Of a stretch of 49,521 bases of DNA, positions 37,180 to 49,521 are shown piece by piece. The position numbers and the translations under genes were made by a program. The first letter of the stretch is position 1, and every line of letters starts with the position of its first letter. Source of the stretch: Candidatus Gastranaerophilales bacterium (lineage in GTDB: Bacteria > Cyanobacteriota > Vampirovibrionia > Gastranaerophilales > Gastranaerophilaceae); the NCBI GenBank assembly GCA_944326475.1, contig CALVEC010000017.1, positions 1-49,521 on the forward strand, written 5' to 3'. The notes under the pieces were generated by a model, which made no database searches, was not told the origin of the DNA, and saw only the letters and a list, made by a program, of their open reading frames with translations.

Positions 37180-37533
37180 TCGTGGGGATTGGGTGAGGAC
37201 TGGTTAATAAGCAGGTTGCGGTAAATTTTAATTTACCGCAACAAAAACCAGACCAAACGGGGGGTTACAGGGGGTGTCCCCCTGTCGGGCGGAGTCGTCT
37301 GTTAGAGCTTGTTAGAACACCCGTAGCCGGTTGCCCCCTTACGGGTCACTCCCCACCCTACCCCTCCCCAAGCCGGGGAGGAAGGACTCCGTCCGGAAGG
37401 TGACTAAATGTCACGTTACGGATGGAGGCAGGCAAAGTGAGATACGAAGTATCTCCGTGCAGTATAAAAATTAAAAGAGTAACTCCAACGCCGGCTGCGC
37501 CCCAAACGGTCTGAGAGCTGCACACCGCGCAGG
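37180..37533. repeat. Repeat-filled intergenic region
   Basis: No gene. It carries a perfect family B hairpin (GTTGCGGTAAATT and complement) at 37215-37242, an inverted family C hairpin at about 37250-37293, and an inverted family E block at about 37340-37460, ending in GATACGAAGTATC. Confidence 0.7.
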
Positions 37534-44747: not shown

Positions 44748-44910
44748 ATCCCTGCTCTCTTATATGGTGACTCAATAATATCAAATTGCAAGCTTTATGG
44801 CAAATTGTTTAGCTCATTTCATATAGTCAATGTAATTTAACATACAGAACAAGATGTAATTAACTATGAGATGGAGATGAAAACATTATAAATTAAATTT
44901 ATTTTATTAT

Positions 44911-47900
44911 TCAAGATAAGTACTTACTAGAAATAACGCGTTTTTCTTTAGGATATAATATATAATCATTATCATAAACATTAATTTTACCTATATCAGA
45001 AACTGCCATAATATAACCCGCAATATCAATCCAGTATATCTTATTATTTTTTATTATAGGAATTACTCTATATTTTAGTTGTGTATATAATATAGAATTT
45101 CTATCCAATTTTACTTGGAATTGTTCTTCATTATTATGTTCTTCTTCTGCATGTTTATTATATTGAATTTTATATATGTGATACCATTTTTTGATCGTAT
45201 CCGGATTGAAGATTTCATCGTTATTAATGTAACCATAGTTATTATAATAGTTTTGAGAAATTTTTTGAGCATCCACTCTTGTTATAACGGAAGAATCATT
45301 CGCCATTATATATGCAGTAACAGGATCAAGGGTTCCCCATGTTATTATATCTTTTAGCCAAAATATAATCCAAGGCAATCCTGTTTTTTCTTTTTGATTA
45401 CCTTTTAAATCATCTTTGTTTAATAAACATAAAGAAATAAAAGCACCTATGTTTCTAGTAAATTTATATAAAAATTCTTTACTAATAAAATCATAATGAT
45501 TTGAAGCGGTACCTGTAAATAGCGTTTTATCTTTTGAAAACCACCATTCAATATGTTTTTTTATTGTATCAAACTTTTTATCAATTTTGATTTTTTCTAT
45601 TTCATTAAAAATTTGTACAATTTTCATAATATAGTTAATTCTGCAATTGTTTCCGAGAGAAAAGTAAGATTCCCCCTCTTTTAGAATTTTGTATATTTCA
45701 CTAAATTTTGCTGTTAATTCCATTGTAATCTTTGGAGTTAATGAAACTTTATAAAAATAATTACGGAATTTTTTATTTGGATAGATAGTTTTTAGAAGCG
45801 CTTTACATCTGAGGTTAATAACATTTTTATAAAATATATAATCACTATTATTTACATAATTTGCATATGTATTTTCCCAAATTTTTAATATTTTATCTTC
45901 TAAATCACCCTCTTTTGAAACATTATCAATTTCTTCTATAACTGATAATAAAAATTCATCTAAATTATCTAATACATTTACTGCTTCGTTATTTTCATTA
46001 ATTGGCCTAGTATTTTCGATCCATTCAATAAACTTTTCTCGACTTGTTTCTTGTGTAATCTTTTGCCATTTATTATAAATTTTTTCTAATAACTTAAATA
46101 GTGCACTAGTTTCTTCATTTTGTGAATTATTCATAAATTCTTCTAAAATATTTACATAATTTGTATGTAAATATTTTAGTTGTTTTTCTTGTTGTGGTAA
46201 TAAAATATAAGTTTGCCCTTCTGTTGTTAAACAAGGACGTCCAGCCCTTCCTATCAGATTTTTAAAATTTTTTATATCTACTAAACTATTATCATTGATA
46301 TCATATGGTTTTCTTTTTAATGATGTATATGGTAATAAAATAATCTCAAATGGTAAATTTATACCTTCAATTAAAGTAGAATTTGCAATAACTACATTTA
46401 TTATATTTTGTTCTACCAATTGTACTAATATTCTTCCTAATCTTCCCGGCATTTTACCATGATGTAAAACAATTCCTTTTTTTAATAATTTATATTCAAC
46501 AGAATCTTGCCCAAAATAATCTGCACATATTTTTAATGCTTTATTATAAATATCTAATTTATCATTATTAGGTATTACGAAATATTGTGGAATATTTTCA
46601 ACATTAGATAAATCTTCTTCAATGTATTTTAGAAATGGAGTTGCATATTGTGAAACTATATCTTCAATACCTAATATAGAAATTAATACAGTTTTATTTT
46701 TGTCTTTGTTTGTCTGTGAAGCATAGTTAAGTGCTGCCCAAAATAATCTTGGCCTCATTTTTTGAATACTTTTTTCATAATTATTATATTTTTGGGGGAA
46801 AGGACATCTTTCAATAGGATTTAATATATAAGGTCTCTGTTTTTCTTCATTTTCAAGCTTTACAATTTTACCATCTATAATATCAACGTATTGTTCATAT
46901 GTACCCAGTGGTGAATAATAAAGGCGACCGATCGTTTGTCTAGTGCTTCTGTAATCCGATTTGATTGGTCTATCCTTACTACCAATGAATGCAGATAAGC
47001 TTTTTTCAATTCCATCAGCAATAGCAGATAAGCCTATGAATCTAGTATTTGCTTTTAATTTCATTTTTAATCGTGTAATTAATGTTTCCAAACAAAAAGC
47101 ACGAGAGTCTTCGGAATTAATATTATGTGCTTCATCAATAATTACCAATTTAACTTTTTCAAGAAATTCATTTCCAAATAGCCTAATAAGAGCATCCGTT
47201 TTTTCTTGCGTACATATGAGAACAAAAGGATGAATAGCCTCCGTTATTGATATTTCATCTGGTCCATAGTCATTGCCTCCATACAAAGATGTAATTTGAA
47301 TATTTGTATTTAAATTTTGTGTCAAAATTTTAGATAATTTAAATTCAACCTCCGCTGCAAGAGCTCGTTTAGGTACTATATATAAAGCAATGCTATCATT
47401 AATGCTATTATCAGAAATATTTTTAGATAATAAATTCTGTATGATCGCTAGTTCGGCTATAGTTGTTTTACCAGAACCTGTTGGCGTACAAAGTAAAAAA
47501 CTTTCATTTTTTGCTAATTCTTCTATCCCTACTATTTGTGATGTCCATGCAAGAGTTTTATTTTCTAAAAAATTTAATTTTAAATATAAATCTAATGCTT
47601 TTTTACCATCATCATTGACAGTTTCTTTTAATTTTTGAATCCACTTTCTTAATGATGTTTCAAAATATACTTTTATTACTTGATTACAAAGCCTACATAA
47701 AATCCAAGAAAAAGAATCTTTACCGTGTAGCATAAATTTTTCTATTGCTTCAAATTTTTTCATTGCAATATCTAATCTATCATTATCTCCCCAACGGAAA
47801 TAGGAATATGTAATACTTATAACCCTTATAGTTTCGTTTATAATATACTGTTGTAATGATAAGTCTTGAGTTTCAGTATTATCAATGTTTGCAATTATAA

Positions 47901-48381
47901 TATTTATATTATTGGTATAATAGTCAGATAACAATTTTATAATACTTATAAAGTCAGCTTTTAATAATGCTTGTAGTATTTTAGATTGGTGACTATCAAT
48001 ATCATATTTATTTAAAACACCTAACCCTCTTGCAGGGTATTCTGCTAACTGATAACAAGCGGCTGATAATAAATATAATGGTAAATCATTTTTATTTATT
48101 TCGGGATGTGCAAGCCATTCTAAGACTTCTCCTGCACGTTTTAAAGCATTTTTAAATTTATTATTATCTCCTTCCCTTTGTATTTCTGCATATTCAATTA
48201 ATAATAATGCTTTATTCAATTGAGACTCAAACATTTGGTCATTCCAAGATTTTAGTCCCTCTTTTTTGGCTTGTAATCTTGAATGATGTGCATATAGTTT
48301 TGCGAAATCTGAAGGAAATGATTCCCCTGCATATTCTTCAATAATTTTATTTGAAATTTCCAAATCTTGTTTTTTATTCAT
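44911..48381 (-). CDS. Ski2-like SF2 helicase, HamB-like (Hachiman-type defence)
   Basis: 1156 residues from ATG 48381, with GGAG six bases upstream; a longer in-frame reading from 48510 lies inside the nuclease gene. Residues 1-290 are helical and unassigned. The helicase core has CTPTGSGKT (298-306), LVIIDEAHN (412-420), IGLSAIAD (449-456), VVIANSTLIEGINLPFE (663-679) and LIGRAGRPC (709-717), the Ski2 pattern. The rest (about 730-1156) is helical and beta-rich. In Hachiman, HamB is a DNA helicase that with HamA senses and destroys damaged or phage DNA. The 8-bp overlap with the nuclease gene supports a two-gene operon. The DNA is strikingly AT-rich relative to neighbours. Confidence 0.8.
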   Translation of the reverse strand: MNKKQDLEISNKIIEEYAGESFPSDFAKLYAHHSRLQAKKEGLKSWNDQMFESQLNKALLLIEYAEIQREGDNNKFKNALKRAGEVLEWLAHPEINKNDLPLYLLSAACYQLAEYPARGLGVLNKYDIDSHQSKILQALLKADFISIIKLLSDYYTNNINIIIANIDNTETQDLSLQQYIINETIRVISITYSYFRWGDNDRLDIAMKKFEAIEKFMLHGKDSFSWILCRLCNQVIKVYFETSLRKWIQKLKETVNDDGKKALDLYLKLNFLENKTLAWTSQIVGIEELAKNESFLLCTPTGSGKTTIAELAIIQNLLSKNISDNSINDSIALYIVPKRALAAEVEFKLSKILTQNLNTNIQITSLYGGNDYGPDEISITEAIHPFVLICTQEKTDALIRLFGNEFLEKVKLVIIDEAHNINSEDSRAFCLETLITRLKMKLKANTRFIGLSAIADGIEKSLSAFIGSKDRPIKSDYRSTRQTIGRLYYSPLGTYEQYVDIIDGKIVKLENEEKQRPYILNPIERCPFPQKYNNYEKSIQKMRPRLFWAALNYASQTNKDKNKTVLISILGIEDIVSQYATPFLKYIEEDLSNVENIPQYFVIPNNDKLDIYNKALKICADYFGQDSVEYKLLKKGIVLHHGKMPGRLGRILVQLVEQNIINVVIANSTLIEGINLPFEIILLPYTSLKRKPYDINDNSLVDIKNFKNLIGRAGRPCLTTEGQTYILLPQQEKQLKYLHTNYVNILEEFMNNSQNEETSALFKLLEKIYNKWQKITQETSREKFIEWIENTRPINENNEAVNVLDNLDEFLLSVIEEIDNVSKEGDLEDKILKIWENTYANYVNNSDYIFYKNVINLRCKALLKTIYPNKKFRNYFYKVSLTPKITMELTAKFSEIYKILKEGESYFSLGNNCRINYIMKIVQIFNEIEKIKIDKKFDTIKKHIEWWFSKDKTLFTGTASNHYDFISKEFLYKFTRNIGAFISLCLLNKDDLKGNQKEKTGLPWIIFWLKDIITWGTLDPVTAYIMANDSSVITRVDAQKISQNYYNNYGYINNDEIFNPDTIKKWYHIYKIQYNKHAEEEHNNEEQFQVKLDRNSILYTQLKYRVIPIIKNNKIYWIDIAGYIMAVSDIGKINVYDNDYILYPKEKRVISSKYLS

Positions 48382-49222
48382 CAGAATCTCCATTCCGATA
48401 AATTTTGTCGATAAAATTTTTAAGATTTGTGATACACAACTCTGCAGCGACAAGGTTCCTTTTACCAGTATAATAACTGTTAATTTTATCTTTTGAAATC
48501 CAACTGTCATTTTTTATTGGTTTTTGGTTATATAAATAACTAACCATATCATATCTTTCTTTTTGTGTATTTGTTATATTGTTTATCGCATCTACAAAAA
48601 GGAGGCTATCACTATCACCTTTTTCAATTAGTAATTGCTTTATTTTATCTCTGGATACTGGAATTATATTACTCTTGCTTAATTTAGAATGTGCATCATT
48701 GATTAAAGTAACATTATGCGTTAATGTGCATTTGGCTTCTATAAATAATACAGCAATTATTTCATTATTTTTATTACGTAAAAAAGCTAAATTATCATCA
48801 CCAGTTCTTCCAGGTATATCCGTTGATATTTCAGCGTTTTGCAAATACATATCTAACCAATCAAAAACTGTATCATGGAAAGAAAAAAGATGCACCGGAA
48901 TTTCCCAATCAAGGTCAAAAGGTTTTTGAGTAATGGCAATTAAACCTCCAAAAACTTCTCCCAAATAACCTTGTAAAGTTTTCAATGGCAATACCACAGT
49001 ATATATAGGTGGTTGTTCTAAGGGATCTAAATTAAATTCATTTATTTTATCAATATATTTTTTTTGAGCTTGCTCATGTGCAATCTTAATATAAGTAATT
49101 AATTCATCAGGGAAATTTTCACCATCTGCATTTAATAATAAATGTATATATGATGGGTTTTTAGAAACTTTACAATCTAACCATTCTTCTATAGCATCTG
49201 TAATTCTTTTTTCCATGTTCAT
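48374..49222 (-). CDS. PD-(D/E)XK nuclease, HamA-like (Hachiman-type defence)
   Basis: 282 residues. GYLGEVFGG holds Glu89; GRTGDDNLAFL holds Asp142/143; VLFIEAKCTLTHN holds Glu162-x-Lys164. This is the E...D...ExK arrangement of PD-(D/E)XK nucleases, matching HamA-type proteins in motif order and gene position before a helicase. The first 75 residues are helical and the C-terminus is charged. A relative such as AbpA is possible; a profile search would decide. TATAAT ends one base before the first ATG (49222), and a second ATG lies at 49216, so the mRNA may be leaderless with the shorter start. It follows an integrase gene by 17 bp. Confidence 0.7.
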   Translation of the reverse strand: MNMEKRITDAIEEWLDCKVSKNPSYIHLLLNADGENFPDELITYIKIAHEQAQKKYIDKINEFNLDPLEQPPIYTVVLPLKTLQGYLGEVFGGLIAITQKPFDLDWEIPVHLFSFHDTVFDWLDMYLQNAEISTDIPGRTGDDNLAFLRNKNNEIIAVLFIEAKCTLTHNVTLINDAHSKLSKSNIIPVSRDKIKQLLIEKGDSDSLLFVDAINNITNTQKERYDMVSYLYNQKPIKNDSWISKDKINSYYTGKRNLVAAELCITNLKNFIDKIYRNGDSDE

Positions 49223-49223
49223 T

Positions 49224-49229
49224 ATTATA
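49224..49229 (-). promoter_or_regulatory. TATAAT box at the nuclease start
   Basis: A perfect -10 hexamer one base before ATG 49222. A transcript starting six to eight bases later would begin at about 49216, the position of a second in-frame ATG. The -35 region is weak (TGATTT). Confidence 0.45.
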
Positions 49230-49239
49230 CCAAATAATT

Positions 49240-49521
49240 TTACAGCAAATCATTCAGCAAATTCATGCATTTGATTTTTTGTTGAAGGTTTGCTCTGCCA
49301 TAAACATTTAGAGTGAATGATACATTTTTGTGTCCTAAAATTTCTGACAGGGATTTTATATCAAAATCCGATATCTCTATTGCTCTTATAGCAAATGTAT
49401 GGCGAAGTTCATGAAATTTTACCGGTGTTAGTTTATGTTTTTTTACAAATCTTGAGAAAAATTGTCTATAAACTCTCGGTTCTGTTGGGGTTGATTTTCC
49501 TGTTAAGAAATAATGATTCGG
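49240..49521 (-). CDS. Tyrosine recombinase / integrase, C-terminal part (cut by window edge)
   Basis: The frame runs from the window edge to TAA at 49240-49242, giving 93 residues. FHELRHTFAIRAIE holds the catalytic Arg and His; LSEILGHKNVSFTLNVYGRA holds the LGH motif and the nucleophilic Tyr. These are the C-terminal signatures of phage and ICE tyrosine integrases. The 5' end lies beyond base 49521. It is on the same strand as, and 17 bp before, the nuclease gene, so the defence pair is probably carried on an integrative element whose integrase is next to it. Composition is AT-rich like the pair. Confidence 0.88.
   Translation of the reverse strand, partial: PNHYFLTGKSTPTEPRVYRQFFSRFVKKHKLTPVKFHELRHTFAIRAIEISDFDIKSLSEILGHKNVSFTLNVYGRANLQQKIKCMNLLNDLL

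What the first reader, a model, noticed from the sequence alone, without database searches (positions are those of the whole stretch)
44911..49521. Integrase-linked, AT-rich nuclease-helicase pair resembling Hachiman defence
A PD-(D/E)XK nuclease (E89, D142/143, E162-x-K164) overlaps a Ski2-like helicase by 8 bp, 17 bp after a tyrosine recombinase on the same strand. The base composition differs sharply from the glycan cluster. The long unassigned N-terminal 290 residues of the helicase are a possible distinguishing feature.
Basis: partly seen in the sequence, partly recalled or inferred. Interest (0 to 1): 0.6.

Follow-up and report, generated by a model that had tools for sequence, protein, structure and literature searches.

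The report
Hachiman defence on a Mu-type transposon
A gut bacterium carries Hachiman, a known phage-defence pair, at the right end of a jumping DNA element of a family whose ends occur in more than a quarter of related genomes examined and which often ferries different defence systems, so the genes are ordinary but the vehicle appears undescribed.

Summary
The helicase matches HamB (PADLOC 7e-69; solved HamB 8vx9_B is the best PDB hit). In a family profile the nuclease aligns E162 and K164 with E138 and K140, the published HamA active-site residues. The helicase's N-terminal ~280 residues are the NAH domain found in all HamBs, not a distinguishing feature.

The "integrase" is probably not the mover. 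In related loci this recombinase sits beside an inverted hsdS gene and its recombination-like repeat, as hsdS invertases of type I restriction systems do.

The mover is most likely a Mu-type transposon. Homology to two other genera stops at window 44831, at a conserved 48-bp terminus. A pattern from it occurs in 105 of 383 family genomes and 21 of 41 genera. Complete relatives have a MuA/MuB-like transposase, a conserved left end and, in ten cases, matching 5-bp target duplications. In G144, whose copy differs from the window by 1 base in 4,691, both ends are flanked by GAGAT. Cargo next to the terminus is enriched in defence genes.

The window's own left half lies beyond the contig end. Hachiman is known; the transposon family is a new variant of a known kind.

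The parts
48374..49222 (-). hamA, PD-(D/E)XK nuclease, 282 aa (alternative start 49216); catalytic-type residues E89, D143, E162, K164
   Evidence: PADLOC HamA 3.6e-5; invariant residues; profile aligns E162/K164 to E138/K140 of solved HamA 8vx9_A
44911..48381 (-). hamB, Ski2-like DNA helicase, 1156 aa; N-terminal ~280 aa = NAH domain, then Walker A PTGSGKT and DEAH
   Evidence: PADLOC HamB1 6.9e-69; solved HamB 8vx9_B is the best PDB hit of the family profile, 1.6e-54, collinear from residue 59
49240..49521 (-). C-terminal 93 aa of a tyrosine recombinase, cut by the contig end; probable hsdS invertase of an adjoining type I restriction system
   Evidence: Pfam Phage_integrase 1.4e-11; identical to the G144 gene, which adjoins inverted hsdS'; same arrangement in L131, L152, L184
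44831..44878 (-). 48-bp right terminus of the transposon (ATCTCCATCTCATAGTTAATTACATCTTGTTCTGTATGTTAAATTACA)
   Evidence: homology to G144 and G089 breaks here; 34-bp core pattern found in 105 of 383 family genomes, none with the reversed pattern in the genomes listed; 48-bp conservation, unrelated flanks
44826..44830 (.). predicted 5-bp target duplication (TTGAC read on the minus strand); the partner copy is not in the assembly
   Evidence: position next to the terminus; 5-bp duplications seen in ten related elements; not testable here

Best explanation
The window holds the right end of a Mu-type (MuA/MuB) transposon carrying a defence cargo. The nuclease-helicase pair is Hachiman: HamB patrols DNA and holds HamA inactive through its N-terminal helical domain; damaged or phage-replicating DNA engages the helicase, which activates HamA to degrade all DNA (abortive infection). 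This mechanism is inferred from the experimentally studied E. coli HamAB; none of it was tested on this protein. The truncated recombinase upstream belongs to the neighbouring cargo module, a type I restriction-modification system with two inverted hsdS genes that it probably inverts. The unit moves by MuA/MuB transposition at a 5-bp staggered cut, inferred from target duplications in relatives; the window's own left half is missing because the contig ends at 49521.
For: Hachiman: PADLOC HamB1 6.9e-69, HamA 3.6e-5; solved HamB and HamA are best PDB profile hits, active-site E138/K140 aligned with E162/K164; gene order hamA-hamB kept on unrelated plasmids and fused in Calothrix. Transposon: same right boundary in three genera; 48-bp end in many copies; MuA upstream in 13 loci, MuA matching phrog_310 1.8e-86; matching 5-bp duplications in seven of ten cases read within one 20-kb stretch, plus G144 GAGAT and G135 GCGAG and ATGGT; G144 pieces joined by a split gene d and a 77-bp hsdS overlap. 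Cargo enrichment: 579 PADLOC families matched by 114 cargo ORFs against 157 by 139 flank ORFs. Invertase: inverted hsdS pair, 81-bp perfect inverted repeat, conserved CCTCAAGTTATCATCT.
Against: The window genome itself shows no MuA, no left end and no hsdS, so the full element there is inferred from the near-identical G144 copy. HamA is divergent: no Pfam DUF1837 hit. Three of ten left/right pairs lack matching duplications. Some right-end copies adjoin genes that do not look like defence.
Confidence: 0.87

Rival explanations
1. The element is an integrase-type genomic island: the tyrosine recombinase next to hamA integrates and excises it at att sites.
For: A phage-integrase-family protein lies 17 bp from hamA.
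Against: The recombinase is absent from most islands with the same terminus. Where its upstream side is present it adjoins an inverted hsdS. Flanks of 33 termini share no sequence, and 5-bp duplications and MuA point to transposition.
Confidence: 0.05
2. The unit is a remnant of, or satellite mobilised by, a Mu-like phage rather than a self-sufficient transposon.
For: ORF a has a 56% homologue on an IMG/VR contig with MuA, MuB and Gam-like genes; two TSD-flanked elements lack MuA.
Against: Elements with MuA and MuB show no recognisable phage structural genes in the ORF listings (read by eye); no right-end pattern in 2.9 million viral contigs.
Confidence: 0.2
3. The recombinase serves the Hachiman pair or an unrelated element nested in the transposon, not hsdS.
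For: In the window the hsdS genes are not visible.
Against: The same recombinase is followed by different cargo in G045, G277, G242 and G126, but adjoins hsdS wherever that side is present.
Confidence: 0.08

Closest known systems
Hachiman HamAB (E. coli; Tuck et al. 2024, PMC12278908)
   Same: Two-gene order, HamA D-ExK nuclease, HamB Ski2-like helicase with N-terminal NAH domain; solved proteins are best PDB profile hits
   Different: HamA is divergent (no Pfam DUF1837 hit, PADLOC only 3.6e-5); closest plasmid homologues found are in Calothrix and alphaproteobacteria such as Rhizobium and Nitrobacter
Tn7-like transposons with defence cargo (Benler et al. 2021, PMC8649781)
   Same: rve/Mu-transpos_C transposase plus AAA ATPase, asymmetric ends, short target duplications, diverse defence cargo; that survey lists Hachiman in 43 elements
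   Different: Transposase matches Mu-phage-type phrog_310 strongly and solved TnsB only weakly (E 0.0015); no TnsA or TniQ seen among the core ORFs tested of L135
Phase-variable type I restriction systems with an hsdS invertase (PsrA, S. pneumoniae; PMC4948785, PMC7096588)
   Same: Tyrosine recombinase beside inverted hsdS genes sharing inverted repeats
   Different: Here the module rides on a transposon next to a variable defence slot; inversion not demonstrated

Membership tests
Hachiman | HamB helicase matching HamB profiles or solved HamB | tested here: met
   PADLOC HamB1 6.9e-69; 8vx9_B 1.6e-54
Hachiman | HamB N-terminal NAH domain | tested here: met
   profile positions 58-1021 align to 59-990 of solved HamB; conserved in homologues
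Hachiman | HamA D-ExK nuclease with active-site E138/K140 equivalents | tested here: met
   E162/K164 align to E138/K140; D143 invariant
Hachiman | HamA matches DUF1837 models | tested here: inconclusive
   PADLOC HamA 3.6e-5 over residues 141-277 only; no Pfam hit
Hachiman | hamA immediately upstream of hamB | tested here: met
   8-bp overlap
Hachiman | phage defence requiring both activities | not testable with these tools
   bench assay needed
MuA/MuB-type transposon | transposase with rve and Mu-transpos_C domains and AAA partner | tested here: met
   in relatives L135 and G144:C6; not found in the window genome
MuA/MuB-type transposon | defined ends with 5-bp target duplication | tested here: met
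   ten relatives including G144 GAGAT; window copy shows the right end only
Tn7-like transposon | TnsA and/or TnsD/TniQ | tested here: not met
   no Pfam match among six core ORFs of element L135; other elements not scanned in full
hsdS invertase | tyrosine recombinase beside inverted hsdS genes with shared repeats | tested here: met
   L184 contiguous, G144 C15/C2, L131, L152; in the window by identity only
hsdS invertase | inversion of hsdS | not testable with these tools
   needs reads or bench

The most novel reading that the evidence does not exclude
Gut Gastranaerophilales share a MuA/MuB-only transposon family, without TnsA/TniQ or phage structural genes, whose main cargo is interchangeable defence modules (Hachiman, types I and II restriction, Lamassu-like, Thoeris-like, Cas9-CRISPR), and which spreads them nearly unchanged between genera.
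Probability: 0.72. Interest if true: 0.62.

Novelty: new variant of a known kind. Interest (0 to 1): 0.52.

Why it matters
Defence islands are known to move, but the element that moves them is often undefined. Here both ends and target duplications of the vehicle are resolved in relatives, so defence cargo can be delimited exactly in many genomes of a mostly uncultured gut lineage, and genes of unknown function between these ends become candidate defence systems. It also shows how a nearby integrase-like gene can mislead about what moves an island.

Tried and rejected
Integrase att-site model: no conserved flanks, and the recombinase is absent from most islands. Integron-like cassettes: considered because right ends occur in same-orientation tandems, dropped once MuA, left ends and target duplications were found. 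A candidate left end TGTAATTTAACGGGACATTTTA was abandoned; it lies outside right ends. Large structured RNA in the conserved left module: Rfam found only tRNAs; the module is small ORFs. Phage origin: no right-end pattern in viral contigs. Left end in the window genome: only a 2-mismatch hit at G000:C6 without TTGAC before it, judged chance. Structure prediction was not run because sequence evidence sufficed.

Full report
Observation. The nuclease runs 49222..48374 on the minus strand, the helicase 48381..44911, with an 8-bp overlap, and a recombinase stop lies 17 bp upstream of the nuclease. The window is contig C17 of its genome and ends at 49521 inside the recombinase gene, so only its last 93 residues are seen. 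GC is 26.7% from 44831 to the end and 39.6% before it.

Identity of the pair. PADLOC assigns the helicase to HamB1 (6.9e-69) and the nuclease to HamA (3.6e-5). Pfam finds only helicase/ATPase domains in the helicase and nothing in the nuclease, so HamA is divergent. Plasmid homologues of the nuclease have 21-36% identity; in the four regions read, it is followed by a DEAD/DEAH helicase (in one with a small gene between) or, in Calothrix, fused to it. E89, D143, E162 and K164 are invariant in six homologues. A profile of these finds solved HamA 8vx9_A as its best PDB hit (0.0011) and aligns E162/K164 to E138/K140, the pair whose mutation abolishes defence (PMC12278908). The HamB profile finds solved HamB 8vx9_B best (1.6e-54), collinear from residue 59; that paper states the N-terminal helical domain is present in all HamBs. 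The pair is Hachiman, and its mechanism is inferred from that work, not shown here.

Recent transfer. None of the three other genomes in the genus has the pair at comparable identity. Two other genera do: G144 (HamA and HamB 100% rounded) and G089 (HamA 99%, HamB 85%). Window and G144 differ at 1 of 4,691 bases. The window contig fits its genus by a 93% match of a nearby stretch to G001. Between G144 and G089, four-fold sites differ at 58% in the recombinase gene, 2.7% in hamA and 27% in hamB, so hamA was probably exchanged by recombination in one lineage.

The boundary. Homology in both comparisons stops at window 44830/44831 with unrelated flanks. A 34-bp pattern from there occurs in 105 of 383 family genomes and 21 of 41 genera; the reversed control was zero in the genomes listed. 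Aligned copies show 48 conserved bases with no conservation on either side.

The transposon. A module of small leftward ORFs (a-d) lies upstream of about 28 of 90 termini, on the opposite strand in each case; many of the others are cut by contig ends. Further upstream lie MuA-like genes in 13 loci, mostly with MuB. MuA matches rve/Mu-transpos_C and phrog_310 at 1.8e-86, MuB phrog_296. A left end TATAGGTTTTCAGGACAGTT was found, with 5-bp duplications matching the right-end flank: ATAGT, ATTTG, TTAGC, TCCTT, GAGGA, AAAAA and GCGGC with variant left ends; three pairs did not match. As a prediction from right-end flanks alone, left ends elsewhere in the genomes were sought: G144 GAGAT, G135 GCGAG and G135 ATGGT all matched.

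The G144 element. Contig C6 holds the left end, MuA, MuB, two small genes with HTH- or SAM-like matches, ORFs a-c and the C-terminal part of d. C15 begins with the N-terminal part of d and holds hsdR, hsdM, a RhuM-Fic gene and hsdS. Its last 77 bases equal the reverse complement of the start of C2, which holds hsdS', the recombinase, hamA, hamB and the right end. This gives an element of roughly 19 kb. The joins are inferred, not sequenced.

The recombinase. In G126 (L184) one contig shows RhuM-type gene, hsdS, inverted hsdS', recombinase, other cargo and the right end; the two hsdS share an 81-bp perfect inverted repeat starting at CCTCAAGTTATCATCT, a motif also conserved at the same place in the other loci. 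Such recombinases invert hsdS in Streptococcus pneumoniae (PMC4948785, PMC7096588).

Cargo. ORFs inside the terminus matched 579 PADLOC families (114 proteins; two giant ORFs left out for size) against 157 for 139 ORFs outside. These count families, not systems. Examples: a second Hachiman (HamA 5.5e-106) in G002, Lamassu-like and type II methylase genes in L198, TIR genes in L182, MmeI in L135, and a Cas9/Cas1/Cas2 set in L122 named by eye from sequence. Not all cargo is defence.

Novelty. Tn7-like transposons with defence cargo, including Hachiman, are known (PMC8649781). The searches made of the open library found no description of a MuA/MuB defence transposon in Gastranaerophilales, which is weak evidence since most subscription papers are not held. 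I file it as a new variant of a known kind.

Noticed in passing
L087:3250-7213 (G002:C17): A different Hachiman (HamA 5.5e-106, HamB1 E 0) with type II methylases and a DUF4238-type gene, capped by the same terminus in a genome of the same genus.
   Followed up: partly
L042:17316-18164 versus L041:1687-2535: hamA is 98.7% identical between genera while flanking genes are 80-88%; four-fold sites 2.7% versus 58% and 27%, suggesting exchange of hamA alone.
   Followed up: partly
L136:2727-5111 and L200 (G075, G135): hamB-like sequence at about 96% identity beside the terminus without HamA found; in L136 neighbouring ORFs resemble a serine recombinase, so hamB may be interrupted.
   Followed up: no
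L161 and L164, just after the right ends: A second left end begins exactly 5 bp after a right end (ATGAG, TATAG), i.e. head-to-tail elements sharing one duplication.
   Followed up: no
L139 and L182: TSD-flanked elements without MuA or MuB, presumably moved in trans.
   Followed up: partly
L201:1306-10231 (IMGVR_UViG_3300028048_000454): Mu-like phage contig (MuA, MuB, Gam) carrying a homologue of left-module ORF a.
   Followed up: partly
window 37213-37487: Short repeats with dozens of dispersed copies across this genome, fewer in relatives.
   Followed up: no
L235:6001-10704 (Calothrix pCAL6303.01): HamA and HamB fused in a single protein annotated only as a helicase.
   Followed up: partly
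L126:1254-18608 and L173:3368-13276: Giant ORFs (5785 and 3303 aa) near termini; cargo is not only defence.
   Followed up: no
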